From positions 1 to 29,729 of the IMG/VR virus record IMGVR_UViG_3300040801_003694: a stretch of DNA of 29,729 nt. One strand, given 5' to 3'. The translations under genes were made by a program, and so were the position numbers. The stretch's first letter is position 1, and each line of letters begins with the position of its first letter. Below are positions 10,901-28,761 of the stretch, one piece after another. Source of the stretch: a virus. The notes beneath the pieces were generated by a model. It was not told where the DNA came from. It did not search any database and saw nothing but the letters and a program-made list of their open reading frames with translations.

Positions 10901-13312
10901 ATGGGCATCTTTAGCTCGAGCTACAAATACTACGCATTCGCCGGCAGCTCTGGACTCTTTGACGAAGATAACCGTCCTCATACCGTTCTTCAGTTGATGT
11001 TGAACGGTATTCTGGGTAACACAGCCTCGCCTCCAGAGGCAATTATTACCGGACTGAACACAAACCTCTATGCTCGAGCAAAGAGCATGTGGAAGTATGC
11101 GTCAAAAGAAGATGGTTACGTCTTCGGCTTTCCTACAGCGTCTACAACACAGTACGTCATCTCCTGGGCTGACCTTGAACCCTACGTAGAGGCAGATGTA
11201 GGCGAGGGCGTAAACATCAACTCTTACTACCTCGGAAATCCAAACGACTTTCAGTACTTCTGGGTTGAGCAAGGCATCCAAGATAACTACAACAGCTGGT
11301 TTACCGGTGATCCTTCACCACTGACTCGCTGGTCTCACTTGGCCTCGGATGTACCAATTCCGGTACAGAACCCAGATACGCTGGAATACTACACTGCCAC
11401 AGGCTACACAACCCAAGTGTCCGGTGACAATGTCACCGTAACGTGGAACTACACAGACAAAGACGGAAATCCACAGACCTGGGTTGCCCCTACCTATTCA
11501 ATGGGTTGGCCAGGGGACACCGGTGAGGTCAAGTACCTCATGGTGCGTTACCGTCTGACCGCGGATACAGATTACTTTGACTACTGGTTCTACGAGATTG
11601 GCTCTGGCGAGAATCCAGCTCTCGAGTCGGAGATTGAATCCCTGGAAATCGAGGCACAGTATCTCCCCATCTCAATCCTGATGCATGACCGCGTCTGGTT
11701 TGATGAAGCGACGGACTTTCCCGAGTGGGAAGAGACACTCGACCGGTTGATGCGTGACATTGCCCTGGATCCGTACGAGATCAAAGAACAATACCTCGAC
11801 AGTCTGGAGAACCCGGATCCGGAAACTCCTCCGGACTCAACCCCTGACATCGAGGATGTGTGGGACTTCTTCATCAAATTTGCCGTTCCGTTGCGCACAC
11901 GCGACAGAGGCGGCCGGGAATATCTATTCCATTTTTATGACCGTTTGAGAAGCCAGACCTGGACAACATTTGACGAATACAACAGTTGGGTGGCAGCTCC
12001 CTTTGGTGATCAGCCTCATTCAACGCTGGCAATTGAAGAAGGTAGCCAGTACACGGGTTACATTGCCCGTTACGCCTGGTCCTATATCGAGAAACGAGAG
12101 TTTGAGGGCGACTTCACACCGCCCGGGTGGCCGGAGCCTTTGAAGAAGCGCCGGCTATGGTCCGCTACCTACCAACTGGGTGATGCCGATTACAACTACG
12201 GTCTCGACATGATCCACGGCCCGGGTAACTACAACGTGGCGGCGAGCCAACCAAAAGGACAGGAACATACCTATACCATCGTGGTTCGGCGTAACGAAGA
12301 TGAGACCCATACAGCGATCTTGATGATGGGTCCGTCAATGGAGTACCAGATCAATACGTCCGAGACACCGGTGGGTGTCGGTGATAGCGGGTATGTGGAT
12401 TATCGCTACCGCTTTGTGGATGTTGAGCTGTTTCCCGAGGATCCAGAGGAAGAGTCTGAGTTTCGCTGGCCAGTAAATATCGCTGCCCTAAAAGAAGTCA
12501 GCGCCATGCAGCGCGAAAACAGCCTATCAGATGGACTATGCGCTACGATCTTCCTGGTCGAGCGGGTCAAAGTGAAATGGTACCAGAAGGGCTTTTTCAA
12601 ATGGCTCATTATTATTATCGTGGTGATCATCGTCATCCTGCTTTGGCAGTATGAGCTGCTTCCAACCATTGCAGCCGCGGCAACAGCCGCTACAGGTGCC
12701 ACTGCACTAGGACTCTGGGCGCTATACGTTGTGCTGACCTTTGCCATTGGCTTCCTGGTCAGCTTTGCAGGTGGATTGATTGGTGGACGACTGGGACAGC
12801 TGTTCGTCATCGTGGCCATGTTCATGGCGATGGGCGGAAGTTTCTCAAACATCAATCCTTTTAGTAAGGTCAGCTCAGCCTGGACCAACCTGACCACTAC
12901 TCCGTCGTTTGGTTCCGCTATTCAGTTCATTCAAGCGACGTATCCTTTCCTCTCAACAGGTCAGAAGATCTATGTAGAGTACGAATTGCATAATCTTCGC
13001 GATGAGATGGAAGATTTCGCTATGACGGCGAGAGAGAAGTACGAGCAGCTACAAGATGCGTGGGATGCAATGGGAGACAGTCCTTCATGGATCGATCCAC
13101 TCGAGATTGCCCGCACATTCTCCATTTCAACTCTGTATGAAGATCCATCAAGCTTCTATTACAGAACTTTGCATGCAAATCCCGGTACTTTGGGGTATGA
13201 TTTGATACAGAATTTTACGAACATGGCTGTAATGCTGCCTAAGTCCCCGGGAAGCCCGGGAATTGTTGATTCTATGATGGAAACATTCGCTGAACAGAGA
13301 GGACAAGTCTAA
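10901..13312 (+). CDS. Large virion protein with a central membrane-segment cluster
   Basis: The 803-residue product follows a TAAGGAGG site. The N-terminus (MGIFSSSYKYYAFAG...) and a large, soluble, Tyr/Trp-rich region with several beta strands fill residues 1 to about 560. Then come three hydrophobic segments: about 568-587 (Ile/Val-rich after FFKW), 603-627 (ALGLWALYVVLTF...) and 633-648. The segment between them is Ala/Gly-rich. The C-terminal 150 residues are helical and acidic. In N4-like phages large internal virion proteins in this position (gene 53-like slot) are ejected with the polymerase; membrane segments in one of them would suit a pore or channel in the host inner membrane. That role is inferred. 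The stop overlaps the next start (TAATG). Confidence 0.78.
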   Translation: MGIFSSSYKYYAFAGSSGLFDEDNRPHTVLQLMLNGILGNTASPPEAIITGLNTNLYARAKSMWKYASKEDGYVFGFPTASTTQYVISWADLEPYVEADVGEGVNINSYYLGNPNDFQYFWVEQGIQDNYNSWFTGDPSPLTRWSHLASDVPIPVQNPDTLEYYTATGYTTQVSGDNVTVTWNYTDKDGNPQTWVAPTYSMGWPGDTGEVKYLMVRYRLTADTDYFDYWFYEIGSGENPALESEIESLEIEAQYLPISILMHDRVWFDEATDFPEWEETLDRLMRDIALDPYEIKEQYLDSLENPDPETPPDSTPDIEDVWDFFIKFAVPLRTRDRGGREYLFHFYDRLRSQTWTTFDEYNSWVAAPFGDQPHSTLAIEEGSQYTGYIARYAWSYIEKREFEGDFTPPGWPEPLKKRRLWSATYQLGDADYNYGLDMIHGPGNYNVAASQPKGQEHTYTIVVRRNEDETHTAILMMGPSMEYQINTSETPVGVGDSGYVDYRYRFVDVELFPEDPEEESEFRWPVNIAALKEVSAMQRENSLSDGLCATIFLVERVKVKWYQKGFFKWLIIIIVVIIVILLWQYELLPTIAAAATAATGATALGLWALYVVLTFAIGFLVSFAGGLIGGRLGQLFVIVAMFMAMGGSFSNINPFSKVSSAWTNLTTTPSFGSAIQFIQATYPFLSTGQKIYVEYELHNLRDEMEDFAMTAREKYEQLQDAWDAMGDSPSWIDPLEIARTFSISTLYEDPSSFYYRTLHANPGTLGYDLIQNFTNMAVMLPKSPGSPGIVDSMMETFAEQRGQV

Positions 13313-13782
13313 TGGGTGCATTTGCAGATGCCCTAAACCAGCAGTTCGACCCCCTATACGGATTGAACCCGCAACAAAGCGCCATCGGTGACGGTATCAC
13401 TACCGGTCTCACGCAGATGCAGAACCCACTGACCATGAGTTGGAATCAGCTGGGTATTGGCGGGAAATTGGGAGTCGTAAGCCAAGGACTGGGCGCATTC
13501 AGTAACCTTGCCAGCCTTTATGCTGGATTCAAGGCGCTTCAACTACAGAAAGATCAGTTCAGGTTCCAGAAAGATGCTTGGAACAAGAACTACAACAACC
13601 AGCTCAAGGACTATGAGAACACTCTCAAAGACCGTTGGACTGCTCGCAACGCATGGGCGCAGAACAACAACCGCTCGTACGATAGCATGAGCAGCTGGGT
13701 TGGTTCCCGCATGCCGAATGGGCAGGCTCCGACGGGGAACTACTCACAAGCAGCGCCAAATAGTGGCGGAGGCTCAGGATAA
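13312..13782 (+). CDS. Small internal virion protein (N4 gene 52 position)
   Basis: This 156-residue protein overlaps both neighbours by the TAATG pattern. It has an N-terminal Gln/Asn-rich region, a Gly/Leu/Ala-rich amphipathic stretch at about 45-75 (GIGGKLGVVSQGLGAFSNLASLYAGF), and then a basic, aromatic helix (KALQLQKDQFRFQKDAWNKNYNNQL) followed by a Gly/Ser/Pro tail. The 'GLGAFSNLASLYAGFKALQLQKDQF.FQKD' motif is familiar from small internal proteins of podophage ejection cores and from fibre-attached proteins. The size agrees with the small virion protein N4 gp52 as I recall it. It may bind membrane through the amphipathic stretch. Confidence 0.7.
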   Translation: MGAFADALNQQFDPLYGLNPQQSAIGDGITTGLTQMQNPLTMSWNQLGIGGKLGVVSQGLGAFSNLASLYAGFKALQLQKDQFRFQKDAWNKNYNNQLKDYENTLKDRWTARNAWAQNNNRSYDSMSSWVGSRMPNGQAPTGNYSQAAPNSGGGSG

Positions 13783-15296
13783 TGGCAAAGCCAATCACAT
13801 GGCGTAATATCGCCGGCCCTTCTTTCCAGAACTCTGCTCTCGGGCAGGGTGTTGATGCGTTCCGTTCGGCAGGTGCAGGCTTCAGCGACCTCACCGACAG
13901 CCTCTTCAAGACCCAGGACCGTATCGATGAGGGATTCACCAACGAGGCCATCCGCCAAACTCTGCAAAGTGGGCAGGTGGACCCGAACCTAAATCCTCGG
14001 GCTGATTCTGCGCAGGTGTACGAAGCTCTCCTTGGAAAGAAAAAGTTCGAGAGCGATCTCGAGACGGCTGAGTCGCAGCGTGCCAACATCACGTCACAGA
14101 TTGGACTACGAGAAGAGCAGACAAAGGATGCTCGCTATCGCAACTCAGAAGAGTGGCGTGCTCTGGAGAAGCGCTCAACCAACGCACAGATTACCGCGGA
14201 CGAAGCTCAGGCCAGCTACAACAGCTGGAAGCTGAAATTCGACCAACGCCAGGACGAAGAAGCCCAACTCATCAAGACTCAGGCTCGTGACCTTGAGTCT
14301 CAGCTGGTCAGTGGACGTCAAGGCATCTACCAACAATATCTCCAAGCCAACCCTGGAGATGAGACCGGTGCTCGTCTCGCAGCACAGCAATGGAGCGAAA
14401 GCCCAGAGGCTCGTCAGGCTCTCGAGGCCTACGCTACTCAGCAAGGCTTCCTGCCGGAGGCGTGGGATCTCAGCACGTGGGGCGAACGTGATGCTCTTCG
14501 TGATCAAAGCCTGGCCAACCTGGCAGAGAAGCGAGCTGAGCGCGACGAAGTCCGTGCCGAGGCTGAGAACAATCGCTTCGTGGCAGAGCTGAACGGCGAT
14601 CTGGGTCTCACAATCGTAGATGAGCAGGGCAATGCCCGCGCTGGTACAGAACAAGAGCTGAAATCGCAGAAGATGAGCAGCTACACTGAGGCCATCTCCA
14701 AGATTCAGAACCACGGGATCAACATTTCTCAGCTGAACGGTATCAAAGGTACTTCACCAGAAGCAGCCGCAATCAACCTGGGTCGTACGAAGTTCCCGAA
14801 CTCTTCTCTGCTGGCTGGCGCCATTGAGCCATTCATCGCAGATGATGGTGAGTTCGACTACAAGAACTTCAATAAGATGCTGGCAGATGCTGGTCCTCGC
14901 ATTTCCATGAACCGAGTTAATGAGATTCGTCAGTCTCGTGGACTGCCTCCCATTCAAGGTACAGAAGGCGAAGAGGGCGGTGGTCCTGGTGCCCAGGAAG
15001 TTCTTGGTGAGCCAATAGTGAAGGGTGTGACAACCAAGCCAGCCACAGCAGGGACACTGAATAGTTACCGTACACGTCTTGCGGAAGCTGAACAATTCAT
15101 GGAGAATCTCCCTGCGGATGCAGATCCTCGAGGCGTAGATGCTCTCCGTCGAGCATTGGTTCGAGCGCAGAGCGAAGGTAAGGTAACTCAGGGCGAGCTG
15201 CCGGGTCTTGAGAAGAATCTGCAGATCTTTGAAAACATCATGCGTCGTTTCACCAACGCGGAAGAACAGCGTCGGGCTTTTGACGCAGCACAATAA
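13782..15296 (+). CDS. Internal virion protein, probably ejection-related
   Basis: The 504-residue protein begins MAKPITWRNIAGPSFQNSA, an opening common to internal core proteins of podophages that lie just before the largest ejected protein. The rest is mostly long helices rich in Glu, Gln, Arg and Ala, with a Glu-rich coiled coil at about 85-180, a middle 'IKGTSPEAAAINLGRTKFPNSS' segment and a Gly/Glu-rich linker near 395-410 (GTEGEEGGGPGAQEV). No enzyme motif is visible. It is immediately upstream of the giant polymerase gene, spaced eight bases, and takes the N4 gene 51 slot. Role: likely part of the virion protein set accompanying the polymerase during DNA delivery (inference). Confidence 0.75.
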   Translation: MAKPITWRNIAGPSFQNSALGQGVDAFRSAGAGFSDLTDSLFKTQDRIDEGFTNEAIRQTLQSGQVDPNLNPRADSAQVYEALLGKKKFESDLETAESQRANITSQIGLREEQTKDARYRNSEEWRALEKRSTNAQITADEAQASYNSWKLKFDQRQDEEAQLIKTQARDLESQLVSGRQGIYQQYLQANPGDETGARLAAQQWSESPEARQALEAYATQQGFLPEAWDLSTWGERDALRDQSLANLAEKRAERDEVRAEAENNRFVAELNGDLGLTIVDEQGNARAGTEQELKSQKMSSYTEAISKIQNHGINISQLNGIKGTSPEAAAINLGRTKFPNSSLLAGAIEPFIADDGEFDYKNFNKMLADAGPRISMNRVNEIRQSRGLPPIQGTEGEEGGGPGAQEVLGEPIVKGVTTKPATAGTLNSYRTRLAEAEQFMENLPADADPRGVDALRRALVRAQSEGKVTQGELPGLEKNLQIFENIMRRFTNAEEQRRAFDAAQ

Positions 15297-15304
15297 GGAC
15301 ATCA

Positions 15305-18300
15305 ATGGACGTCTCAGGTTTTGACAGAATCCTTTCGGAGAGTCTGACCGCAACTCGGCGTAACGAGGAAAAGCTCGCCGAGGCCTCTCAGCGGATGCAG
15401 AACAAGTTCAATCCACTCAACTACGAGAACGTAGAGCATGTGGACGGGGACACCTTTCGCCTAAAAGATCGCCCTGACTACAGCTTCCGTATCCAGAATG
15501 ATCCAAGCTTTGGGGTGGATACCTACGAGAGCGATCGCCGGGTGTACGAGCAGCAGCCTGATCGTCTGGCTGCCCACAAGCGTAACTACGCGAAGCTGAC
15601 CGGTCGTCCTGAATGGTCCATCACCATCAACGAGCTGGTTGACCGCGGCAAAGTGCAGGCTGAACAGGTCCGCCAGCGTATGTCTCAGCTGGGACAGGAA
15701 GGAAGACTGGGCTACAAGTCCAATGGCTACGATGAGTACGGGCGTGAGCTGATCCAGGTTTACGATACTGAAACTGGAGAAAACGTCTACGGCCAACACA
15801 GTGGCCGTGAACAAAACGCCAGCTACGACTCGAAGTACAACTCTGGGCAAGTCCTCAAGGATATTTTCTCTGGAGAGTATGGTAAGTACACGGCATTCGA
15901 CAATACCCGTGGCGTCAAAGATACTGCAAAGGATCTGGGCGTTAATCTAGCGGCCGGCACAGGTCGTATGCTCACAGGATTGGCTCAGGGTGCACTGACC
16001 CTGATTGGCGGAAATGGGCCGGTTGTAGACCGCTTTTTCAATGCTGTAAACGAAGGTCTGGACAACTTCCAGGATTCAGCTCTGTCCAACGAGGCTCTGG
16101 CCCGCAATGCCCGCATTGACCGAAATCGTGCTCGTAACGTAGAAGCCTACGGCGTTCGCAAACAAGAATACCTCCGTCAGGGTTACACCGAAGGTGAAGC
16201 CAGCTTCTTTGCCGGAGCAGAAGAATTCCAAGACACCGTGGCAGATCTGCTGACGGAACCTGGTTACATTATCGACAAGACGGTCGAGTCTCTCCCTTAC
16301 ATGATCGGCGTGGCCGCTGCGGGCCGTGCAGCCGTAACCCAGGCAACCAAGCTTCTGTCCAAGAATGTTCTGAAGAGTGTAACAAAGGCAGGTGGAACGA
16401 AGGAACAAGCCCGTGCTTCTGTCAAACTAGTACTCGAATCTGAGGCTGGTAAAAAGATCCTCAGCCGAGTGGCCAGCACCACCGGTGTGGCCGCAGTCGG
16501 TGTAACTGAAGCCCTGTCTACCTCCGCTGATGTCTACAACAGCGTATTGAACATGTCGGAAGCCGAAGCTTCCAAGTCCGAACAGTACCGTGCACTGCGC
16601 CAGGAAGGCATGGGTCACGTTGAAGCTACCCGTGCTCTTGCCGAAGCTGCGTTCGAGTCTACGTTCCTACCAGCGATGCTGATTGCTGGAGCGGCCTCAT
16701 TCATTACCGGTGCTGGTGGGTTCGAAGCCCGCCTGTTCACCAATCAAGCAGGTAAGTCTTTCGTGGGCAAAGGCATTGCCGGTGAGAGCGCTGTCAAGAT
16801 TGGTTCAGGCCTGACAGACAAGATCGTCGGCGGAAGCGTACGTAATATCGGACGATTCGCCCGCTTTGCTGGTCCGGCCGGCACTTCCGAAGCGACGGAA
16901 GAAGCCATCCAGTCCGGCTCACAGGAATTCCTCACACAGTTGGCTCAATTTGAGGCAGGTGTTGGCGAGGCTCCAGGTCCGGGTATTGGTGCAGCAGCAG
17001 GTGAAGGCGCAGCTATCGGCTTTGCTTCCGGTGCTGGGTTCCAATCTGTCTCTGGCGGGATCAAAAAGCTGGCTGACTCAGATCTGCGTAAGTCCGGTAT
17101 CGATGCGCTGGAAAGAGCCAAGAATGTTCGTAACCTGACGGACAATACTGGTGCCGTTGGTGGATCTAAGGTACGTGCGCAACGCAATGCTCGTAACGTA
17201 TCTCCCGAACAAGCAGCCTCTACTCTGGAAACAGTGGCGAAAGAGTGGGAGGCCTCCGATGAGAAGAACATCAAGGACATTGAGGATCTGCTCAAGCGCA
17301 AGTCTGAGATCGACCAACTGGTCGAAAAGGCGGAACAGTCCGAAGCGGGCGTAAGCCCCGAAGTACAAAAGCTCCAGGACGATGTCCAAGGGCTGTACGT
17401 CACTGCCCTGGATCGGGCAGCTGCCGCGGTATTGAAGCGGAATAAGAAGCCGGCTGATCGTAGCAAGAAAGAGAAGAGAATCCTGGCGGAAGCCATCGCT
17501 GAGAATGTGCCTTCTGTTCGCGAGGACGAGCAGTCATCGCGTATTTACTCGCATACTCGTTCTGCGATCGATGCCATTGAGAAGCAGACAGAAGCAACCA
17601 TCAAGGGAAGCGCTGAAGCCGCGGCTGCACAGGTAGACCGTGCTCTCGATAACGTACCCGAACGTGAAACTGAGCGCGTAGCTCGTGAGAAGATGGGGCG
17701 CCTGGATACTGATTTCGGCCCCGGGCTGATGGGCCACTTTGATCGTATTAACGAAGCCATCGTAAACAACGACAAAGCTGCCGTTGAGAAGCGCTTCGAG
17801 AAGTTCAACAACTTCATGAACAGCCAGCGCCACAAAGTACAGCAGCTGGCCAATTTCCTGGAAATGTCTGAGGAAGACCAGGCGAACCACAAGAAGTTCA
17901 GATACAAAGCCGGTGTCACTGAGAAGTACTACAACCTGCTCCAGGATGAGCTGGAAACGATGCAACAGGTCCGTAATGACCTGGCAGAGCTGTACAACCA
18001 GTGGAACCCCCAGCCACAGCGCACTGCGAACATTCCTGCCGCACCGAAGGTGCCGAAGCGCAGAAACTATGGTCGTGGTCCGGATCAGCAATCAGCCGAA
18101 GCGGAAACCTCCAATCAGCCGGAGAAAAAGTCTACTCGACCTCCGGCAGAAACCAAGCGCAGAAAGCGCAACTATGGGAGCGCCAAGGATGAAAATTCTA
18201 CGGAACAAGGATCAGCCGAAGACAACGTCGGACAGTCATCATCCGACACTGGAACAGGAACCGAAACAGAGACTGAGCAAGAAGCAAGTCCTGAGAGCGA

Positions 18301-21300
18301 GCCTGTCGATCAAGGAACTGAGGGAACTCCGGCGAGTGAGACGGCAGAAAGCCAAAGCAGTGAGAGCGGTACAACTGAACCGACCGCCTCCGATGTAACT
18401 CGTGAGCAGCTCGAAAACATGCCAAGCAGGGCCGTGTACAACATGGCTCTGGAACTCGGCATGCAGATCCAGGGTGTGGCAAATGTTGGTCAGATGATCG
18501 ACTTCATCCTGGAAAACCAGGGAACTGAAGAAACGACCGAACAAGTCGCCGAACAAGAGACCGAACAAGCTACAGACCTGGCGCTGGAAGACCTCAAAGT
18601 TCCAGAGCTGCAAGCTTTGGCTCGTGCCGAAGGTATCCCCCTGTCTGAGAACGGTCGCAAGCTGCGCAAGCAGGAACTCATCGACCGTCTCCGAAACGAA
18701 ACGATGGATGAAGCTTCTCAACAGGAGGTAGAACAAAGTGCCAGAGAGCAAGAGCAAGCAGAAACCGCGGCGGAATCCAACCGAGAGGGTGGGACCACCG
18801 AAGAATCTGTCACAGAGAACCGAAGAGAAGCAATCGAATCGGCGATCTACGACGAAAACGACTTCGTAGCCGGCCTGACTCGCATTTGGGCATTCTCTGA
18901 CAATGAACTGAACGCAACCCTGGCTCAACGTCTGCTGGAAGTCCTCGAGGGCCGTAAGATCAAGATCACGGTGCTGAATGACAAGGACTTTGTTGCACGG
19001 GTGAAGAAGGATGGCGGCAAGAACTACGAAGATGATCCGCCAACTGCCATGTTCCTGGGTAAAACTCAGGAAGTTCTGCTGCGCAAAAAGACCCGCAACT
19101 CGAATGCAATGGAAGAGGCCTTCCTGCATGAACTGACTCACGCTGCTATCAACGGCTGGATGATGCGTCCTGCCAAGAACAAGCGGGATCGTACGCTGCG
19201 TGACCATGCCCTGAAGACTCGAGGCATGATCATCAATCGTCTGGAGCAGCGGGTTAAGGATAATCCGGAAGACACAGATGCAGCTGACGTTCTGTCCCGT
19301 CTGAAAGAGAACAAGGAAGAGTGGATTGCCTATGCATGGTCCAATGAGAAGACTCAACGTATCCTAAGTGAGATTGACCTCGGATCGAAGTCTGCCTGGA
19401 CCCAGATCCTGGACATGATCAAGGGCATCCTCAAACTGGATCGTCGTTCCGCTCTCACCCACACCCTGCGCATCTCTAACGAGATCTTCAAGAATGAAGA
19501 GGGACAGCCCGGACGGACTTCTCGTGATGGTCGTACCCACACACCGAGCAAGGCTCAAGATCAGACAGCCCGCCGAGTGCGTACGCTGCTGAACCGTGTG
19601 GACACCCTGACAACCCAGCTGGAAGCAGCTGAGCCTGGTTCAGGGGCAGAGATCAACCTGGCTCGCCGACTGGAAGAAGCCAACGCTGAACTCGAGAAGC
19701 TCGGAACTGAAGAGCAGTCTGTAGCCTCTGAAGCTGAAACCGCTGTTGACGAAGCCGAAGCTGAAGTCGGAGCACAAGCGGAGGCGCAGCCGGAGCGCAG
19801 TGCAGAGACGGAAGCTGAGGCGCCCGTCGTAGCAACAACGAACAATGACCTGTGGTGGGATCGTATCAACGAAGTTGAACGACTCCAGTCACTGCTGCGT
19901 AATGGATCCATCACGGAAGAACAGGTTCGTTTCCCTGGTTCTATGGAAGAAGACCAGCGCCGATTTGAAGAACTGATGGCGAACGGTAACACTGCTGCCA
20001 GCGCACTGGCGCAGATGGAAACCGATATCAATGAGCGTCTGGACCGCAGCCAACCGCGGACAGAGATCCCTACAGACTACCTAAACCTCGAAGAAGCTGT
20101 ACAGAGTGCTGTACAACTCACCAAGACCGGTGAAACAGACCGCGTACAGAATATCCTCGAGGGTGCTTCTGACTTTACTTCAGAGTCCAACTGGACACGT
20201 ATCAAGAAATGGATCCTCGGTTCCTACGATCGTGCCAACATCAAGGACATCATCACGGAAGCCTTCAGAGGCCGCCTGATTCCAACCAGCGTGGAAGCTG
20301 GTTTTGACACAGCCCGTGATAAGGCCCGCAGCCTGATCACAGCTGTACCGAACCTGCATGATATTCTCAACAACCCAGTGGGTCGTCGTAAGCTCTATGA
20401 TGCTCTCGAGCTGACACCGGCTGAAGAGGCTGCGTTTGATGCCTTCGCCGAATTCCGGAACGAGATGAAAGATGCGGTTGACTCCGCATTCCAGGAACTG
20501 TTCCGTGACAAGATCGACTACCGTGACGGTAACCGTATTGCGCAGAACCCGGCCTACCTGCTCACGGACGACACAGACACACTCCTGCCGGGTGTGATCA
20601 CGGCTATCGCCTACGAGAGCATGAACTGGGTCACAGGGGACGGCTCACGTCTGTACAACGACGATGAGACCATTGCTCGCATTCTGGGTCTGCCTGACGG
20701 TGCACAACCCAATGACAAGCAGATCCGTCTGCGTACGGCCGGCACACTCCGCCGTAACGTGAATGACCGGATCGGCAGCGCGGTGTACCGCCACCTGAAC
20801 ATCAGAGCCAAGAACAGCCCTGACATTGCTCCGAACCTCGACGAGCGTATGGAAGCAGCGCTGGGTACGATTGCCATCCGCGCACTGCAGATCACTCGTC
20901 CAGCCGGACAGCGTGGTCCAGGCCGCGTACAGGCCATCACATTCGATGGAGCTGAGTTCCGTGCGATGAAGGGCGAAGAAGCCACAGAGCACGAAGATTA
21001 CAGCAAGCCAATCAGCTTCATCCGGGCTACGGCCGCAAGCAATCGCGGATCCCGTCGCTTCCTGCTGAGCAATCCAAACGGATACCTCCAGGAAGACATC
21101 CGCCCGGGTCGTACTGCCATGAACCGCGTGTTTGGCGTGTCCAACGTCATCAAAGAGCCGCTGACCTCGCCTCCAACGGAAGAGAACATTCCGAAGAAGG
21201 CACTGCGCTCCGTAACACGTCTGTCGAAGAAGATGCGCGAAGCCATTCGATTTCAGCAGTCTCGCGAATGGCAAGCCAATACGCGCCTGATCGACAAAGT

Positions 21301-24300
21301 TCGTCAGTTTATTCCTGAGCAGTACCTCAAGTACGCTCACGAAATGGAAGATGACCTGTCATCTATCCATGACCTGGAGCTGGACAACGTCGAGGGCCGT
21401 AACAGAACACTGATGACCGCGCTGGAGAATGCTCTCAACTGGGGAGCACGTGAAGGCGATGGATCTCTGTGGTTCACATACTCAATGACTCGTACCGGTC
21501 GTACGATGATCGACTCGACGTACATCAATCCACAGCAGAGCAAGATCCACCGCTTCCTGTTTGGTCAAAAAGCTTGGCAAGAAACCATTGAACCTGGCGA
21601 CATTGAGTTGCTGGAGAATTTCAAGATTGCCGTAGCCCAAGGACTGGGCATCAAGGTTGATAAGATGACGCGGGAAGCGATCCTCGCGGCTGTTGAAGCA
21701 CGGATGCAGGACGAAGACGTCCAGGCAGCCCTGGAGGAACTGGCCACGGATGGCCCGATCAACCTTGAAGTGGATGGGAATCCAACGGCACTGGGTAGTC
21801 TCCTCAAGGAAGAGGGGACACACACCCTGGCTGCGCTCATGGCGTGGCAGGACTATCTGGATGCAGATGGCGGGGCCTTCACCACAAACCTCCCAATCGA
21901 GGTCGATGGTGTAACCAACGGCTTTGCGGCTGGACTGCTGCAAACTCCGCCTATTGATCCTCAGGCGATGGAACGTCTGAAGGATCTGCTGCGTGCGGTG
22001 GGTGTTATTTTCACGGAAGATGAAGAGAAGAGCTTCGCAGAATGGCTGAGAGACCCGAGCAACCGGGACAACTATCAGTCCGCTGCAAGAAAGACGGCCG
22101 AGGCAATCAGTCGAATGATGCCTGGTGGTGACCTCTTCCAGTCATTGGATCGTCGGGAAGAAGCAGACCGATTTATGATGGTGATCGGCGAAGAAATGAA
22201 CACGTTGCTGGCATCTGGATTCAGCTTGGATGAACAAGCTCTGAAGGATCCGAAGACCGGTCGTGACTTTGCCAAGAACCCGCTGATGATCGTGGCTTAT
22301 GGTGCCAGCTCTCGTACAGTCGCCAACAACTTGGTTGAGAACATCTGGCTAGAGGCTCACCGCCAAATGGCCGCGGTAAACCGTATGCGCATCAAGGAAG
22401 GTGAAACTGAAGAGCAGTTCAAGGAAAGACAAGCCCAGGCATTGCTGGATGTACTCAACAAGTACATGGATGTGAATAACACCGGCAAGGAAGCCTACTA
22501 TTTCTCACGTGGGTGGAAGTTCAAGGCAGATGAGAAGTTCACCCGCGATGATCTGGACGTCATGATCGAGCGCAAGCTGGTCAAGGACAAGTGGGGCGAT
22601 CCGGTAACTGACATTCAGGGACTGGCTCGTTCATTCCAGTTCCAGGATGACAAGCGCAGCAAGGAATACCTGAAGACCAACTTCACCCGTGCCATGAAGG
22701 CCGTGTATGGCCGCGGCATCGAGGCAGCTCTGAGCGAGATGCTGTCCGGTATCCGGGAAATCCGCAACACGTACACCCAAGCCATCACAATGATGAACGC
22801 GATCTTTGTCATCGAGTTCCAGCGTCGGGTGGAAACAGAAGAGGCAGCGACGGGCCGGGTAGTAGGCCGTCACCGCCGTACACAAATCGTAGAGCGTATG
22901 CACGCAGAAGGCCTGGTGCCAAGCGTAGCCTCCGCCTACAGTGATCCGAACAACCTGTCTGAGAACCTCGAGCTGACAGCGTGGCAGCACAACCTGATCA
23001 ACGATCAGAATGTGAAGATCCTTCACGATGACTACGAGGGCGTAACCCGTATCCATTACGGAGATGGTACGGTTGAAGTGCTGGGTGACACCAAGTCCAC
23101 AACCAACAACCTGACCGCTCGCGACCCAAGCACTGATGTGGGTGTGGCGGGTATCGTTGGAAACATTCACTCTCTGGACGGAACCAACTCTGCCGACATC
23201 TTCGGAGCCTTCGACGTACTCAACATGTTCGATGCCTGGGTCATGAAGCTGAGTGATCTGGGAGCCGTTCCCAATCAGGGTAACAACCGGTTCTTCAACC
23301 AGCACCGTGACTATGACATGGGTCAGGAGCTGGTGCGTTCGATGGATCGTATGCTTCTGCTGGTTACAGAGGGTGACGGACGACTGAGCGCTGCTCAACG
23401 CCGTGCAGCCGGCAACCTGCTGATCAGCGAGATGAAGAAGCACGGTCAATGGTCGGAGGACATGGATGAGCAGTACACGATCGATATGGGTGCAGATGGA
23501 ACACCCATCTACGATACGCAAGCTGTCATGAATGACCTGGCCGCCGACATGCGGAACACGGTTTCGCAGGTTACGGAAGCCAAGGCCGAGATCATAAAGA
23601 TCATCGGCAGAATGGATCAGTTCGCCAACGACGGAACGGCATATGAAGTGCCAGAGAACCGTCGCAACGAGCCACTCCCCACATTGGAGGAAACTGAGAA
23701 ACATGCCAGACAAACCGCTTCAGCCGAGAAAATCACAGCCAAGGCCGCCACGTTGGCGAGAAACCTGGATAACGGTAACTTCAATGAAGCGTTCTTTAAC
23801 TGGCTCCAGGAAGAAACAGTTCGGCCAAGTGAAGCTCTTCGAGTTCTGAATGAGCTGATCCAAGACAACGCCATTGGCAATGTCGCCGAGCAGATGAACC
23901 AGTTGGTAGCAGTTCTCCACCAGTATGCGAACAACTCCAATCCTATCGTGGTGGGACGTACCGCTGGTCCGGATGCCAAAGGTGAATACAGCAACGGTCA
24001 GATCACCATTGACCCAACCAAGTTCGGCGAAGAGGACAATCCGGTTGAAACCCTGCTGCACGAGATTCTGCACGCAGCCACAGCCGAAGCTCTGGACAGA
24101 CTGGAACAAGACAACCCAGACTTGCTAATGAGCATTCACGCTCGAGGACAAGCGCTGTACAACACGCTGAAGTCTCGCAAGAACCTGGCACGTCCGCAGC
24201 AAGAGTTCCTCATTGCCTGGAAGGCACAGAAGGATCCGGTTATCCAGACTGGAGAATACCTGGCGCATGTACAAACCGGTCTCCTCGAAAATGACATGGA

Positions 24301-27300
24301 CCAGCTGTACCTGGCGTTCGGCACTCCTCGTAGCCAGTGGATCTCAACCTTTGCTGCGATGGGTTCAATCCTGACTCAGGGCAACACCAAGACAATCAGA
24401 CTGCGATCATCACAGGACAAGGTAAACAATGACCTGTTTGACGCAGCCAACGAAGGTAAGAAGCTCGAGCACCAGAAGCTCCTGGATGCGTTCGAGGACA
24501 TGCGTGCCATTGATGAAGAGCATGACGGCCAGTCAGCCCGTGAATACGCAGAGTTCCTGCGACCGGTAATGAATGGCATTCTCCTGCCTGGTTTGGCAGG
24601 TCTCATCAACGACGTCATTCTGAAGACTGGCGTCGAGACTGACGGAACGAAGAACCTCGGTGAAGTAGAACGTGGCAGCGATGCTGACATCCTGAAAGTT
24701 CAGGTAGCTGGCGCCAAGCTGACTAATCCCGGCGACATGACAGCACAGGAAGTGCTGGCTCACGAGCTGTACCACGCCATCACTGGGTTCGCTCTGGAAA
24801 CTGACACCAAGGTCAGAGCGGAGCTGCGCAAAATTTACGAGTACGCCAAGGATCGGCTAACTTGGGAAGACTTCATGCCTCCGGCAGATGAGATTGCTGG
24901 AGACCTGTCTGCGGTGGAGGCAGCCGCACAAGAGCGCTATGACTACGTGTTTGGTCGAGTGCCTTTTGACAAAGACGGGAACCCTGAAGTCGATCAGCTG
25001 CAGGAATTTGCTGCGCTGGGCATGTCCAATAAGCCATTCGCTCTGGCACTGTCCCGAATCGACGCACCGAGCGCTGCCGAACCCATCTGGGACGGTAACA
25101 TTCTCTCGTCTCTGGTTAATCTGATTAACAAGGGACTCGAGATGCTCCGGAGCTACACCCTGGGTACTCGTAAAGCGCAGTCTTCCGCTGAAGCTCTGCA
25201 CAGGCTGAGCCAGAAGGTAGTGACCATCAACAAGAACGCGAAGATCCGCGGTAAGCAGTTGAAGGGTCACGATGCAATGTGGCGCAACAAGGTAGACAAC
25301 CGCGCAGGTGAGTGGATCTCCAATAAACTGGAAGCAGCACAACGTAGACTCCGACTCAGCGAAGAAGAGAAGAAGACTAACGGGTCTGTAGCCAAGTGGA
25401 TCCGCATGGGAACCCACGCAGCTCTGGCTTCCCGTACTGAAGCACAACAGAAGGCGAACAGAGAGTTCATGCGCCACCTGGGTGTGAACAAGCAGTCCGC
25501 CCTCTCTGAGATCATCTCCGAGGTCATGCCTTACAACAAGGATGACCGTGGCGGAGCTGACGGTAAGATGGGCTTCCTGGATCTGCTGAGACACTCGAAG
25601 GTGTTGATCGACATGGCTCGCCAACGAGCGATTGAGCACACAAGCTCTGTGCTGATGTCTGCATTCGATCCGAAGCGCAGGCTGAACCGTGCGCAGCGAC
25701 TGGCGATGACCAATGTCCTTCTGCGTACCGACCTACATGCTCTGACGCAGCACAATGATGCTCGCAAGCTGAGCGAGATCCAGGAAATGATCCGTAACGA
25801 TCAACTGATCGATGCTGAGCTGGCTCGCCTGTACCGTGCACTGGTCCAAGAGCTGGAAGCTCAAGGCGCCAGCGATGTGCTGACCATGTACGAACGTCAG
25901 ATGGCATCCCTGGCCAACTACATGACCAAGGGAATCATGCTGGAAGACAACGGCATGAAGAACGTGCACAACATCGTGCGCCAGTACAATCTGACCAACT
26001 ACAAAGATCGCGTGTATATCGCTGATCCCAAGAAGCTGGATCCAATCCTGGATCAGATGGTGACTCTCCAAGCTCTGAAGCGCACGGAAGTTCGAGATCG
26101 AGAGCTGGCACTGCAAGTGATCGACCACGAAATGCAGCGCACTGATGACAATGGATTCCTGTACACGATGGGCATGGCCGGCAACTTCAAGTACGCCGCT
26201 CTGACTGACCTGTTCCAGAATAATCCAGTGCTGGTGCGCAAAGGCTACGTCTACGACATCACAGACGGTGACCGTAACATCGAAGTGATCTTCGACACGC
26301 CAGCTGAACGTGAGCGCATGAGAGACTTGGGCATGGTTCGTATCGGGCGTGTACAGGAAGACCGTCACGACCGGTCAGCTCCATATCCGAGAGCCATGTA
26401 CAAAGGCTTCCGTGGTGCTAGCACCTGGCAGAAAGCAACAGTTTCTCTGACCTCGACCCAGCGCCAAGGTACGTCGCTGTTCGAAGTGTCTGGCTTTGAT
26501 CCGAAGCGCACAGGTTGGAACCTGGGCCGCATGATTGCCTACAAGGATGTTGAGGCGAAGAAGCAGTTCAAGCCTGGTCAGTTGAAGACTGATGCACCTA
26601 TCGCCATCCCAGTGCTGGACGAAGCGGGTCGTATCGTAGACTACACCTACGAAATGAGCCTGAAGGACCGTGCACACCACCTGAAGAACACTCGTAACAA
26701 CGACTACTTCGATCTGGTGCTGCCTCGTCAGTTTGGTTCGATCCCTGACCGTATCCACACCAAGAAGATCAACAGCCAAGCTGCTGACTTGATCTTCAAG
26801 GAGTACATGGCGTTCAAGGATTCACCGGAGCACAAGTTCGCCAAAATTGGCAAGTACTCGAACAAGCGCGGTAAAGACATGTGGAACGTCATCCCTGATG
26901 ACATGAAGCGTGAGCTGGCCGAGAAGTTCAAAGGTACCCAATTCGTGGACAAGAAGGGCCGCCTGATTGCTCTGCCTCTGAGAGATGAAGCAGTGAACCT
27001 GGTGATGGGCTTCCGCAAGCTGTCGATCCTGGATCTCCCAGGGCCGAAGGGCAAGAAGCTGATCCGTGGTCAGAAGGCTACATTCGCAGCCAAGACTGCC
27101 GAGAAGGTCTGGCAGGAAATCATGCAGCTGGTTCGCATCAAGATGGCGATCATCAACCCAGAAGTTGTGATCGGCAACCTCAGCTCGAACTACGGCATCC
27201 TGCTGGCGAAGGGTATTCCGGAAAGATACATCCGAGACAAGACCTCAGAAGCGATCCGTGGTATGCGTCAGTACCAGCGTGATGTGCGCAAGGTGGACGA

Positions 27301-28036
27301 ACTCCAGCGACTGATCGGTATTCGCCTGAACACCATTCCAAGCACTGCGGTAACTACCGACCGCAAGCTGCAGAACATGGTAAATGAAAGAGAAAGATTG
27401 AAAGCCGAACTCCGGGTGAACCCGGTTGGCAAGTTGGTAAATGCGGGACTCTTTACGAGTATCGTTGAGGAAGTATCTTCGGACGAAGATACCTATCGTG
27501 AGTGGATCATTGGTAGCGCTCTGGACAAGTTCACTTCAACTCTGCCGAGCAAGGGTGTGCAACTGGCGAAGGAAGCCTACATGGTTCCTGGTTCCAACGC
27601 CTTCAACATGGCCATTGCAGCCACCCAGTACGGTGACTTCATTGGACGTTACATCCAGTTCCGTTATGAGACGGAGCACAAGGGTGTGGAAGAGCGCGAT
27701 GCTATCAACAACGCCCTGGCGACATTCATCTACTACGACATGCCGCAGAACCGTTGGCTCCAGTACATGAATGACAATGGCTTGCTGATGTTCACCAAGT
27801 TCTTCCTGAGAATCCAGCCAGTCATTGCCCAGCTGTTCCAGGAGAACCCAGTGAAAGCGACGGGTGTATTTGCGGTACAGCAGGCTCTGATGAATCCGTT
27901 CGACGAAAACATCGGCAAGTACGCGCTGTTCAATGGATTGGATAACCGCTACGAGCCGTTCCCACTGGCTCACATGGACAAGCTGGATCCGTTCAACCCG
28001 TCACTGTTCCAGTGGTTGAACCCGCTAGGCCTCTAA
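15305..28036 (+). CDS. Giant virion RNA polymerase, N4 gp50-like, with added nuclease-like and metallopeptidase-like domains
   Basis: The 4243-residue protein has an AAGGA site before ATG 15305. Visible order: (1) residues 40-165, staphylococcal-nuclease-like (VDGDT with D49; R62; GVDTYE with D72, T73, E75; DEYGR with R147); (2) residues 200-600, Gly/Ala-rich amphipathic segments at about 213-236, 330-346, 453-475 and 563-590, suited to membrane insertion; (3) helical region, then an acidic linker at 905-1030 with two KR-NYG motifs; (4) two SAP/Rho_N-like modules at about 1033-1073 and 1093-1132; (5) zincin 1, H1275ELTH and E1339; (6) polymerase core, about 1640-2750, with TRTGR (R2066), LPIEVDG (D2201), R2320...K2324...Y2332G, IHSLDG (H2622) and MFDAW (D2643); (7) zincin 2, H2919EILH and E2984; (8) zincin 3, H3153ELYH and E3234; (9) about 1000 C-terminal residues, helical, no motif recognised, ending FQWLNPLGL. 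In N4 the protein is packaged, injected and transcribes early genes. It is longer than N4 gp50 (3500 residues). Confidence 0.93.
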   Translation: MDVSGFDRILSESLTATRRNEEKLAEASQRMQNKFNPLNYENVEHVDGDTFRLKDRPDYSFRIQNDPSFGVDTYESDRRVYEQQPDRLAAHKRNYAKLTGRPEWSITINELVDRGKVQAEQVRQRMSQLGQEGRLGYKSNGYDEYGRELIQVYDTETGENVYGQHSGREQNASYDSKYNSGQVLKDIFSGEYGKYTAFDNTRGVKDTAKDLGVNLAAGTGRMLTGLAQGALTLIGGNGPVVDRFFNAVNEGLDNFQDSALSNEALARNARIDRNRARNVEAYGVRKQEYLRQGYTEGEASFFAGAEEFQDTVADLLTEPGYIIDKTVESLPYMIGVAAAGRAAVTQATKLLSKNVLKSVTKAGGTKEQARASVKLVLESEAGKKILSRVASTTGVAAVGVTEALSTSADVYNSVLNMSEAEASKSEQYRALRQEGMGHVEATRALAEAAFESTFLPAMLIAGAASFITGAGGFEARLFTNQAGKSFVGKGIAGESAVKIGSGLTDKIVGGSVRNIGRFARFAGPAGTSEATEEAIQSGSQEFLTQLAQFEAGVGEAPGPGIGAAAGEGAAIGFASGAGFQSVSGGIKKLADSDLRKSGIDALERAKNVRNLTDNTGAVGGSKVRAQRNARNVSPEQAASTLETVAKEWEASDEKNIKDIEDLLKRKSEIDQLVEKAEQSEAGVSPEVQKLQDDVQGLYVTALDRAAAAVLKRNKKPADRSKKEKRILAEAIAENVPSVREDEQSSRIYSHTRSAIDAIEKQTEATIKGSAEAAAAQVDRALDNVPERETERVAREKMGRLDTDFGPGLMGHFDRINEAIVNNDKAAVEKRFEKFNNFMNSQRHKVQQLANFLEMSEEDQANHKKFRYKAGVTEKYYNLLQDELETMQQVRNDLAELYNQWNPQPQRTANIPAAPKVPKRRNYGRGPDQQSAEAETSNQPEKKSTRPPAETKRRKRNYGSAKDENSTEQGSAEDNVGQSSSDTGTGTETETEQEASPESEPVDQGTEGTPASETAESQSSESGTTEPTASDVTREQLENMPSRAVYNMALELGMQIQGVANVGQMIDFILENQGTEETTEQVAEQETEQATDLALEDLKVPELQALARAEGIPLSENGRKLRKQELIDRLRNETMDEASQQEVEQSAREQEQAETAAESNREGGTTEESVTENRREAIESAIYDENDFVAGLTRIWAFSDNELNATLAQRLLEVLEGRKIKITVLNDKDFVARVKKDGGKNYEDDPPTAMFLGKTQEVLLRKKTRNSNAMEEAFLHELTHAAINGWMMRPAKNKRDRTLRDHALKTRGMIINRLEQRVKDNPEDTDAADVLSRLKENKEEWIAYAWSNEKTQRILSEIDLGSKSAWTQILDMIKGILKLDRRSALTHTLRISNEIFKNEEGQPGRTSRDGRTHTPSKAQDQTARRVRTLLNRVDTLTTQLEAAEPGSGAEINLARRLEEANAELEKLGTEEQSVASEAETAVDEAEAEVGAQAEAQPERSAETEAEAPVVATTNNDLWWDRINEVERLQSLLRNGSITEEQVRFPGSMEEDQRRFEELMANGNTAASALAQMETDINERLDRSQPRTEIPTDYLNLEEAVQSAVQLTKTGETDRVQNILEGASDFTSESNWTRIKKWILGSYDRANIKDIITEAFRGRLIPTSVEAGFDTARDKARSLITAVPNLHDILNNPVGRRKLYDALELTPAEEAAFDAFAEFRNEMKDAVDSAFQELFRDKIDYRDGNRIAQNPAYLLTDDTDTLLPGVITAIAYESMNWVTGDGSRLYNDDETIARILGLPDGAQPNDKQIRLRTAGTLRRNVNDRIGSAVYRHLNIRAKNSPDIAPNLDERMEAALGTIAIRALQITRPAGQRGPGRVQAITFDGAEFRAMKGEEATEHEDYSKPISFIRATAASNRGSRRFLLSNPNGYLQEDIRPGRTAMNRVFGVSNVIKEPLTSPPTEENIPKKALRSVTRLSKKMREAIRFQQSREWQANTRLIDKVRQFIPEQYLKYAHEMEDDLSSIHDLELDNVEGRNRTLMTALENALNWGAREGDGSLWFTYSMTRTGRTMIDSTYINPQQSKIHRFLFGQKAWQETIEPGDIELLENFKIAVAQGLGIKVDKMTREAILAAVEARMQDEDVQAALEELATDGPINLEVDGNPTALGSLLKEEGTHTLAALMAWQDYLDADGGAFTTNLPIEVDGVTNGFAAGLLQTPPIDPQAMERLKDLLRAVGVIFTEDEEKSFAEWLRDPSNRDNYQSAARKTAEAISRMMPGGDLFQSLDRREEADRFMMVIGEEMNTLLASGFSLDEQALKDPKTGRDFAKNPLMIVAYGASSRTVANNLVENIWLEAHRQMAAVNRMRIKEGETEEQFKERQAQALLDVLNKYMDVNNTGKEAYYFSRGWKFKADEKFTRDDLDVMIERKLVKDKWGDPVTDIQGLARSFQFQDDKRSKEYLKTNFTRAMKAVYGRGIEAALSEMLSGIREIRNTYTQAITMMNAIFVIEFQRRVETEEAATGRVVGRHRRTQIVERMHAEGLVPSVASAYSDPNNLSENLELTAWQHNLINDQNVKILHDDYEGVTRIHYGDGTVEVLGDTKSTTNNLTARDPSTDVGVAGIVGNIHSLDGTNSADIFGAFDVLNMFDAWVMKLSDLGAVPNQGNNRFFNQHRDYDMGQELVRSMDRMLLLVTEGDGRLSAAQRRAAGNLLISEMKKHGQWSEDMDEQYTIDMGADGTPIYDTQAVMNDLAADMRNTVSQVTEAKAEIIKIIGRMDQFANDGTAYEVPENRRNEPLPTLEETEKHARQTASAEKITAKAATLARNLDNGNFNEAFFNWLQEETVRPSEALRVLNELIQDNAIGNVAEQMNQLVAVLHQYANNSNPIVVGRTAGPDAKGEYSNGQITIDPTKFGEEDNPVETLLHEILHAATAEALDRLEQDNPDLLMSIHARGQALYNTLKSRKNLARPQQEFLIAWKAQKDPVIQTGEYLAHVQTGLLENDMDQLYLAFGTPRSQWISTFAAMGSILTQGNTKTIRLRSSQDKVNNDLFDAANEGKKLEHQKLLDAFEDMRAIDEEHDGQSAREYAEFLRPVMNGILLPGLAGLINDVILKTGVETDGTKNLGEVERGSDADILKVQVAGAKLTNPGDMTAQEVLAHELYHAITGFALETDTKVRAELRKIYEYAKDRLTWEDFMPPADEIAGDLSAVEAAAQERYDYVFGRVPFDKDGNPEVDQLQEFAALGMSNKPFALALSRIDAPSAAEPIWDGNILSSLVNLINKGLEMLRSYTLGTRKAQSSAEALHRLSQKVVTINKNAKIRGKQLKGHDAMWRNKVDNRAGEWISNKLEAAQRRLRLSEEEKKTNGSVAKWIRMGTHAALASRTEAQQKANREFMRHLGVNKQSALSEIISEVMPYNKDDRGGADGKMGFLDLLRHSKVLIDMARQRAIEHTSSVLMSAFDPKRRLNRAQRLAMTNVLLRTDLHALTQHNDARKLSEIQEMIRNDQLIDAELARLYRALVQELEAQGASDVLTMYERQMASLANYMTKGIMLEDNGMKNVHNIVRQYNLTNYKDRVYIADPKKLDPILDQMVTLQALKRTEVRDRELALQVIDHEMQRTDDNGFLYTMGMAGNFKYAALTDLFQNNPVLVRKGYVYDITDGDRNIEVIFDTPAERERMRDLGMVRIGRVQEDRHDRSAPYPRAMYKGFRGASTWQKATVSLTSTQRQGTSLFEVSGFDPKRTGWNLGRMIAYKDVEAKKQFKPGQLKTDAPIAIPVLDEAGRIVDYTYEMSLKDRAHHLKNTRNNDYFDLVLPRQFGSIPDRIHTKKINSQAADLIFKEYMAFKDSPEHKFAKIGKYSNKRGKDMWNVIPDDMKRELAEKFKGTQFVDKKGRLIALPLRDEAVNLVMGFRKLSILDLPGPKGKKLIRGQKATFAAKTAEKVWQEIMQLVRIKMAIINPEVVIGNLSSNYGILLAKGIPERYIRDKTSEAIRGMRQYQRDVRKVDELQRLIGIRLNTIPSTAVTTDRKLQNMVNERERLKAELRVNPVGKLVNAGLFTSIVEEVSSDEDTYREWIIGSALDKFTSTLPSKGVQLAKEAYMVPGSNAFNMAIAATQYGDFIGRYIQFRYETEHKGVEERDAINNALATFIYYDMPQNRWLQYMNDNGLLMFTKFFLRIQPVIAQLFQENPVKATGVFAVQQALMNPFDENIGKYALFNGLDNRYEPFPLAHMDKLDPFNPSLFQWLNPLGL

Positions 28037-28321
28037 TTGATCATCCTTAGGGGGCGGTATGTACTCAATACTGCCATCATCATGATGGATGCATTGGGAG
28101 CCGGCCTTGAAGCTTAGTTGCCGGAGCTTGTGGACACATTCTCTACAGGCCCAATCAGTCCGGCCCGTCCTTGGGCCGGATTTCCATTCAATCTTATCTT
28201 CCATCCAACGCAGTATATGTCCCTCGCATCCGCGAATAGTGCAGCGTGAAGGAAGCATAGACCAGAGTCTGTAGAAAGTGTCCGAGCGGTGGGCGAGGTA
28301 CTGCATCAGATCCATCAGCAT
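28025..28321 (-). CDS. Small Cys-rich protein, possible zinc ribbon
   Basis: This 98-residue protein starts at 28321 within the stop codon of the upstream phosphatase gene (TAATG overlap), with an AAGGGGA-type site just upstream. Its last 12 bases overlap the end of the polymerase gene on the other strand. Residues C27 and C32, then C59 and C62 (WACREC), plus nearby His, suggest a metal-binding ribbon. The rest is basic and aromatic with no recognised family. It is the last gene of the leftward cluster. Confidence 0.6.
   Translation of the reverse strand: MLMDLMQYLAHRSDTFYRLWSMLPSRCTIRGCEGHILRWMEDKIEWKSGPRTGRTDWACRECVHKLRQLSFKAGSQCIHHDDGSIEYIPPPKDDQLEA
28159..28180 (+). terminator. Candidate terminator of the late operon
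   Basis: TCCGGCCC pairs perfectly with GGGCCGGA over eight base pairs around a six-base loop (GTCCTT), followed on the plus strand by TTTCCATT. It lies about 120 bases after the polymerase stop, inside the opposing small gene. There is no true intergenic space for a terminator because the convergent genes overlap. The T run is short, so efficiency is uncertain. Confidence 0.5.
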
Positions 28322-28761
28322 TAGAAGTCCCCTTCGTCTACTTGACAGACATGGTAGCCTGCCTCGCGGAAAGCAACAACTAGTCGTCTGCGGTCTTCAA
28401 AGATCGTGTGTGGATACTTGGTGGGGTTCTCTCTGAGGAACTCTTCCAGCTTTTCCAACTTCACGATGGTGTCATCACGGTAATCGCCATGCGGTCGCAT
28501 GATTAAATTGTGATACTTGATATTGTGATCCTTCAGCCACTTCTCTGTTGGCTTTCGTACACGCTCATTACGACCAGTTAGCAGCATGATCTCATGACCA
28601 TGATCGTATAGCGCTTGAAGGATCCCAATAATGGGTACGATGGGAGCATCCCCATCTGTCTCTGCATCCCAGGCATCCCAATCCTTCTTTTCCTTTCCCA
28701 GGATGTGATGCAAGCGATGAGTAGCGTCGGCAAGTGTGCCGTCAATGTCAAAGATGTACAT
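28321..28761 (-). CDS. HAD-family phosphatase, like the T4 polynucleotide kinase 3'-phosphatase domain
   Basis: The 146-residue protein has the full HAD motif set: motif I FDIDGTLAD (D5 nucleophile, D7 acid), motif II LLTGRN (T62, G63, R64), 'RPHGDYRDDTIVK' with K101, and motif IV FEDRRR (E122, D123, R124). The layout, including 'RP.GD.R.D..VK' and a C-terminal 'AGYHVCQVDEGDF', matches the phosphatase half of T4 Pnkp/PseT, which removes 3'-phosphates and 2',3'-cyclic phosphates from nucleic acid ends. The kinase half is missing, so this is a stand-alone phosphatase; a nucleotide phosphatase role is also possible. It could heal RNA or DNA ends during infection. GAGGA precedes the ATG. Confidence 0.88.
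   Translation of the reverse strand: MYIFDIDGTLADATHRLHHILGKEKKDWDAWDAETDGDAPIVPIIGILQALYDHGHEIMLLTGRNERVRKPTEKWLKDHNIKYHNLIMRPHGDYRDDTIVKLEKLEEFLRENPTKYPHTIFEDRRRLVVAFREAGYHVCQVDEGDF

What the first reader, a model, noticed from the sequence alone, without database searches (positions are those of the whole stretch)
23930..25190. Two further tandem zincin-like domains directly after the polymerase core
H2919EILH with E2984 (E-Y-L-A) and H3153ELYH with E3234 (E-F-A-A) repeat the same layout as the upstream domain, with 61 and 77 residues between the last His and the Glu. Each is preceded by short strands (IVVGRTAG...ITIDP; ILKVQVAGAKL). Three copies in one polypeptide, flanking an RNA polymerase, is an unusual architecture I cannot place in a described protein. 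The copies are divergent, so they may have different targets or be old duplications.
Basis: partly seen in the sequence, partly recalled or inferred. Interest (0 to 1): 0.85.

Follow-up and report, generated by a model that had tools for sequence, protein, structure and literature searches.

The report
Tandem zincin domains behind phage polymerase
A giant RNA polymerase that N4-like phages carry in the virion and eject into bacteria ends in an ancient pair of protease-like zinc domains; most relatives keep only one with intact catalytic residues, but this phage keeps both plus a third in front of the polymerase.

Summary
ORF 15305-28036 (4243 aa) is a schitovirus (N4-like) virion RNA polymerase. 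HEILH2919-2923 with E2984 (domain A) and HELYH3153-3157 with E3234 (domain B) lie in two consecutive domains. Profile comparison shows that A and B are homologous to each other and to the domain at H1275. AlphaFold models put each HExxH and its Glu on the two expected helices.

The kind is known. Iyer et al. [quoted passage not shown]

What appears new:
(1) B exists in all 138 vRNAPs surveyed. It is degenerate in A-type phages, N4 included, where it aligns to residues 2373-2592, the start of "C2", said to resemble no known structure.
(2) Of 114 full-length vRNAPs, 96 have A only, 11 B only, 4 both, and 3 neither but an N-terminal HExxH. This phage alone has three zincin-type motifs.
(3) Two close Vibrio phages differ by a clean in-frame loss or gain of A.
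(4) A-type zincins also sit in large internal or probably ejected proteins of phages without a vRNAP.

Most likely one intact zincin acts as a peptidase after delivery, and B also serves as scaffold. Activity and target are unproven.

The parts
15305..28036 (+). virion RNA polymerase (N4 gp50-like), 4243 aa
   Evidence: PHROG 2206 'virion RNA polymerase' E 4e-297; tblastn to 468 phage records, mostly schitoviral vRNAPs among those listed
18785..19483 (+). zincin domain N (aa 1161-1393), in front of the polymerase: HELTH 1275-1279 (19127-19141), Glu1339 in EWIAYAWSN (19319-19321)
   Evidence: domain-A HMM 32 bits in this protein; hhalign vs A 97.8%; tblastn to a DarB-like protein 8e-6
21275..23365 (+). 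single-subunit RNAP core segment (aa 1991-2687), containing TxxGR and the HSLDG motif taken as motif C
   Evidence: alignment with N4 and 11 other vRNAPs, anchor HMM
23882..24427 (+). zincin domain A (aa 2860-3041): HEILH 2919-2923 (24059-24073), Glu2984 (24254-24256)
24467..25255 (+). zincin domain B (aa 3055-3317): HELYH 3153-3157 (24761-24775), Glu3234 (25004-25006)
25256..28033 (+). rest of the C-terminal region (equivalent of N4 C2 after residue ~2592)
   Evidence: alignment to N4; PHROG 2206 match runs to aa 4203
10901..15296 (+). upstream genes in the order of N4 gp53, gp52, gp51 (the last two are the other two ejection proteins in N4)
   Evidence: phrog_2220 and phrog_2646 hits; gene order as in N4. 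Third ORF (13782-15296) had no PHROG hit; assigned by position only

Best explanation
Domains A and B are an ancient tandem pair of zincin-type (HExxH + Glu) metallopeptidase domains that open the C-terminal region of schitovirus virion RNA polymerases. Shown by sequence, model and fold comparison: both copies here keep both His, the base Glu and the distal Glu; they are homologous; B is present in every vRNAP surveyed; in most phages, N4 included, B has lost its catalytic residues while A keeps them; in a Vibrio/Alteromonas-rich group B keeps them and A is usually absent; when neither is intact, an HExxH lies in front of the polymerase. Inferred: vRNAP is packaged and ejected with the genome, and an intact zincin then acts as a zinc peptidase (two His and the distal Glu bind Zn, the Glu of HExxH activates water) on a protein met during or after delivery: a host protein, an ejectosome partner, or vRNAP itself in the cell. 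B has a second, structural role in the C-terminal module, which is why its fold survives loss of the active site. In this phage three intact sites coexist; they may be redundant or have separate substrates.
For: Homology: A vs intact B 98.4%, E 9e-15; A vs degenerate B 83%, E 9e-6; comparisons of A, B and N with other parts of the C-terminal region gave 0.2-0.7%. Census: 137 of 138 vRNAPs have an intact HExxH, the exception being a contig truncated before A. Invariance of the four catalytic positions in intact copies against very divergent backgrounds. Structure: A+B model pLDDT 79, B alone 82 with pTM 0.80; both have sheet, HExxH helix, Glu helix. B fits N4 2373-2592, Z 10.6, rmsd 3.7 A over 178. 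Both fit the lethal-factor and PPEP/Zmp1 zincin fold at Z 5-7.7. Delivery: N4 vRNAP is injected, and the A-type domain with intact HExxH and an ELVAWGLT-like motif is in an Autographiviridae inner core protein, in two probable equivalents and in a DarB-like protein at 49-69 bits. Not pre-packaging processing: N4 vRNAP is packaged unprocessed (PMC5512222). Modularity: Vibrio phi 1 and VCO139 differ by an in-frame ~654-nt segment equal to A, with flanks 94-97% identical.
Against: No zinc, peptidase activity, substrate or mutant phenotype was found in the papers read, and none could be tested here. Recombinant full-length N4 vRNAP showed no evidence of degradation (PMC12633501), so it is not an indiscriminate self-cleaving protease under those conditions. 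Loss of B's site needs only about two changes on the RNAP-core tree, so the joint loss of His, His and Glu rests on few independent events. Fold matches to lethal factor and PPEP are below Z 8, where the tool warns of chance arrangements. The position of the intact zincin varies, which fits a mobile accessory as well as an essential step.
Confidence: 0.62

Rival explanations
1. Self-processing: the intact zincin cleaves the giant vRNAP itself, inside the head or after entry, to free the polymerase core or relieve the inhibitory C-terminal domain.
For: Iyer et al. propose autoprocessing for polyvalent-protein zincins, with P1 DdrB as a case of proteolytic processing. The N4 C-terminal domain inhibits transcription, so cutting it off would activate. 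Long low-complexity linkers flank domain N here.
Against: N4 vRNAP is packaged full length and recombinant N4 vRNAP showed no evidence of degradation. The same domain occurs in ejected-type proteins without a polymerase. The intact copy can lie before or after the core.
Confidence: 0.2
2. Structural or regulatory zinc sites only: the domains are folded wedges for packaging or for autoinhibition of the polymerase, and zinc just stabilises them.
For: The N4 C-terminal domain is reported to be required for encapsidation and inhibits the RNAP. Degenerate B persists in 47 of 65 aligned vRNAPs, often with a Glu/Arg pair where His and Glu were (31 of 47), so the fold is useful without catalysis.
Against: The general-base Glu of HExxH, not needed for zinc binding, is invariant in all intact copies. 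A is cleanly absent in VCO139 while present in its close relative, so A is not needed as scaffold. 137 of 138 keep at least one full HExxH.
Confidence: 0.15
3. HExxH oxygenase rather than peptidase, as hinted by the preprint's mention of radical-SAM/HExxH enzymes.
For: A weak fold match to the alpha-ketoglutarate HExxH oxygenase ChlB domain (8s5f), Z 3.6-3.8; citation in PMC12633501.
Against: Peptidase folds match far better (Z 6-7.7), and distal Glu plus helix order follow zincins.
Confidence: 0.03
4. Chance motifs in helical protein.
For: HExxH is short.
Against: 0.064 expected per protein against 3 observed; conserved positions, profile homology and models.
Confidence: 0.005

Closest known systems
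Escherichia phage N4 vRNAP gp50 (PDB 9pnr, 9pnt and others)
   Same: RNAP core followed by a zincin (C1, HELVH 2228) and then a second domain of the same fold (2373-2592), same gene neighbourhood
   Different: In N4 the second copy is degenerate (F..T and distal Thr) and there is no HExxH before the polymerase; 3500 aa against 4243
Vibrio phage phi 1 vRNAP
   Same: Both A and B intact, 235 residues apart (234 here)
   Different: No N-terminal zincin; its near-twin VCO139 lacks A altogether
Zincin-like metallopeptidases of polyvalent proteins (Iyer et al. 2017, PMC5512222), including DarB-like and Autographiviridae inner core proteins
   Same: HExxH helix plus Glu helix after a three-stranded sheet, fused into giant delivered proteins; N4-like RNAPs are stated to carry one or more
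   Different: The universal tandem B domain and its degeneration are not described in the passages read; three copies in one vRNAP not mentioned there
M34-type fold: lethal-factor catalytic and N-terminal domains, PPEP/Zmp1 endopeptidases
   Same: Fold resemblance of both A and B (Z 5-7.7); lethal factor likewise pairs an intact and a catalytically dead copy of one fold (from knowledge)
   Different: No sequence match, no Pfam ATLF hit, no Tyr at the usual place before the Glu

Membership tests
Schitovirus virion RNA polymerase (N4 gp50-like) | whole-protein profile match and T7-like single-subunit core | tested here: met
   PHROG 2206 E 4e-297; core alignable with N4, RNAP-core tree puts window with L031
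Schitovirus virion RNA polymerase (N4 gp50-like) | gene order portal - tape measure - major head - gp53/52/51 - vRNAP | tested here: met
   PHROG hits of upstream genes against N4 map; gp51 by position only
Polyvalent-protein zincin metallopeptidase (Iyer 2017) | HExxH on the first and Glu on the second C-terminal helix, after a three-stranded sheet with an N-terminal helix | tested here: met
   DSSP of models for A and B; conservation; profile homology between copies
Polyvalent-protein zincin metallopeptidase (Iyer 2017) | binds zinc and cleaves peptides | not testable with these tools
   no assay; metal in N4 C1 not described in the passages read
M34 (lethal factor) / PPEP peptidases | fold | tested here: inconclusive
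   Z 5-7.7, best after N4 itself, but under 8
M34 (lethal factor) / PPEP peptidases | Tyr seven residues before the zinc-binding Glu (feature recalled from knowledge) | tested here: not met
   window has Asp2977 (A) and Pro3227 (B) there (sequence); a Tyr elsewhere is not excluded
M34 (lethal factor) / PPEP peptidases | sequence profile match | tested here: not met
   no such family in Pfam scan up to E 10; HMMER filters limit weak matches

The most novel reading that the evidence does not exclude
Schitovirus ejection depends on one delivered zinc peptidase whose place in the giant polymerase is interchangeable, while its sister copy B became a universal pseudo-zincin scaffold at the start of N4 'C2', with the zinc site often replaced by a Glu/Arg pair. 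The window phage is a rare lineage that kept both sites alive and gained a third before the polymerase.
Probability: 0.35. Interest if true: 0.75.

Novelty: new variant of a known kind. Interest (0 to 1): 0.5.

Why it matters
The role of the 1,400-residue C-terminal region of N4 vRNAP is an open question, and its C2 part was reported to resemble no known structure. The survey identifies the first ~220 residues of C2 as a degenerate sister of C1, gives a simple rule (at least one intact zincin per vRNAP, place variable), and points to concrete tests in a classic laboratory phage. Finding the same module in inner core proteins of phages without a vRNAP suggests a general job in delivery rather than in transcription.

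Tried and rejected
IMG/VR scan with the window's 881 aa alone found nothing, and a 13-sequence alignment was too diverse to search with; subsets worked. phmmer of A+B or of N against PDB: no hits. Pfam on the separate domains: nothing above cut-off (weak Peptidase_M91 for A, SprT-like for Vibrio phi 1 A). Foldseek of B alone against PDB gave no match under E 0.001, so the zincin fold call rests on VIA-align plus motifs. Fisher tests on joint loss of B's catalytic residues (p 4e-15) are not used as evidence, because the tree shows about two changes. Chance-motif and oxygenase readings were considered and rejected. HEEFH in L033 lies inside the RNAP core and is taken as chance; the HELAH/HELMH in L166 and L161 do not fall in a domain found by the A, B or N profiles.

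Full report
Observation. The window carries one ORF of 4243 aa (15305-28036, +). It matches the PHROG of schitovirus virion RNA polymerases at E 4e-297, and upstream genes match portal, tape measure, major head and gp53/gp52-like proteins in N4 order. HExxH occurs at aa 1275, 2919 and 3153 (expected 0.064). The two in the finding lie right behind the polymerase core, and E2984 and E3234 are as stated. The window is a 29.7-kb virus fragment with no close relative found: the best surveyed one is L031, 35% identical in the core.

Relatives. Twelve annotated phages and about 150 IMG/VR loci were read. In an alignment of 65 non-redundant C-terminal regions two positions carry the motif. Position A (window 2919) is HExxH with E[LF].A[WY]G[LM][TS]N in N4, EcP1, Pylas, ort11, PA26, Littlefix, XC38 and many others. 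Position B (window 3153) is HExxH with EF.A.G.TN in Vibrio and Alteromonas phages and the window's own neighbours. In A-type phages B is still present, but the first His is usually Leu, Ala, Ile or Phe, the second Glu or Gln, and the distal Glu usually Arg; 31 of 47 have the Glu/Arg pair, while N4 has F..T and Thr. A larger census of 138 gives, among 114 full-length proteins, 96 A only, 11 B only, 4 both (window, Vibrio phi 1, L024, L031) and 3 neither (L021, L049, L066). Those three have an HExxH before the polymerase. The only protein without any is a truncated contig. The window alone has N, A and B intact.

Homology of the copies. hhalign: A vs intact B 98.4% (E 9e-15), A vs degenerate B 83% (9e-6), intact vs degenerate B 99.9%, N vs A 97.8%, N vs intact B 96.0%, controls 0.2-0.7%. 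N was built from only five divergent sequences, and in L021 and L049 the second motif is unclear, so their N-terminal HExxH may be of another subtype. The A profile alone finds N, A and B in the window protein at 32, 60 and 17.5 bits.

History. On an RNAP-core tree (quick method, several long branches) the window is sister to L031. A's state changes at least 7 times and B's at least twice, so B's decay is essentially one or two old events and A is the mobile part. A clean case: Vibrio phi 1 and VCO139 are 94-97% identical in flanks and differ by an in-frame block of about 654 nt, exactly domain A. Whether this is loss or gain cannot be told, though the phages closest to the pair lack A.

Structure. 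Against PDB the A+B model finds only N4 vRNAP at E below 0.001. VIA-align aligns it over N4 2133-2592 (Z 10.3; the large rmsd probably reflects a different orientation of the two domains), and B alone over 2373-2592 with Z 10.6, rmsd 3.7 A, 178 residues. Next come the N-terminal and catalytic domains of lethal factor, Certhrax and PPEP-3 (Z 6-7.7), and for A the lethal-factor catalytic domain, Zmp1 and Spartan (Z 6.4-4.8). In the viral model library B matches other vRNAPs, large polyvalent proteins and, weakly, a crAss-like 'RNAP associated protein fused to zincin protease'.

What is known. Iyer et al. [quoted passage not shown] Bellis et al. 2025 solved N4 vRNAP: C1 (2124-2375) has HExxH; C2 (2376-3500) shows no significant structural homology; the C-terminal domain inhibits the RNAP; its role in early transcription is unknown. 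Here N4 2373-2592 is identified as the degenerate sister of C1.

Function. Three facts bear on it. Intact copies keep the base Glu as well as the ligands, so catalysis appears to be under selection. The intact copy may sit before the polymerase, directly after it, or one domain later, so a fixed geometry to the polymerase is not needed. And A-type domains with the same motifs sit in an inner core protein of an Autographiviridae phage (phikF77), in probable equivalents (a Pradovirus internal virion protein and an unannotated Limnohabitans phage protein), in a DarB-like protein, and in giant proteins of Vibrio phages 1.205.O and Vp_R1; none of these is annotated as a vRNAP. Together they favour a peptidase acting on something met during or after delivery over polymerase-specific self-processing. 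N4 vRNAP being packaged full length and recombinant N4 vRNAP showing no evidence of degradation point the same way. B's persistence without catalysis shows it has another, structural use. Substrate, zinc and activity remain unproven, and why three intact sites are kept here is open.

Noticed in passing
window 18584-18697 (aa 1094-1131): SAP/Rho_N-like stretch (Pfam E 5e-4 and 5e-3, both below cut-off) just before the N-terminal zincin, in a low-complexity Glu/Gln/Thr-rich region; possible DNA-binding insert.
   Followed up: no
window 18785-19483: N-terminal zincin most like a DarB-like protein of Serratia phage Parlo by tblastn (8e-6); not folded.
   Followed up: partly
L170, L174, L175, L173, L171, L172: A-type zincins in Autographiviridae inner core-type proteins, a DarB-like protein and giant Vibrio phage proteins, with HExxH and, where alignments were read, the ELVAWGLT-like motif.
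   Followed up: partly
L014 10957-11611 vs L015 near 10955: In-frame presence/absence of a whole zincin domain between two nearly identical Vibrio phages, a natural deletion experiment.
   Followed up: yes
L002-L169, B domain: In degenerate B copies the second His and the distal Glu are often replaced by Glu and Arg, as if a salt bridge took the place of zinc.
   Followed up: partly
window 7981-9492: Major head protein is 503 aa but matches a 356-position profile end to end, so it seems to carry a large insertion.
   Followed up: no
window 28321-28761 (-): Small ORF beginning MYIFDIDGTLADATHRLH looks like a HAD-type phosphatase.
   Followed up: no
BFVD hit A0A345MT41: A crAss-like phage protein named 'RNAP associated protein fused to zincin protease' matches B weakly (E 0.08): a possible parallel fusion in another phage group.
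   Followed up: no
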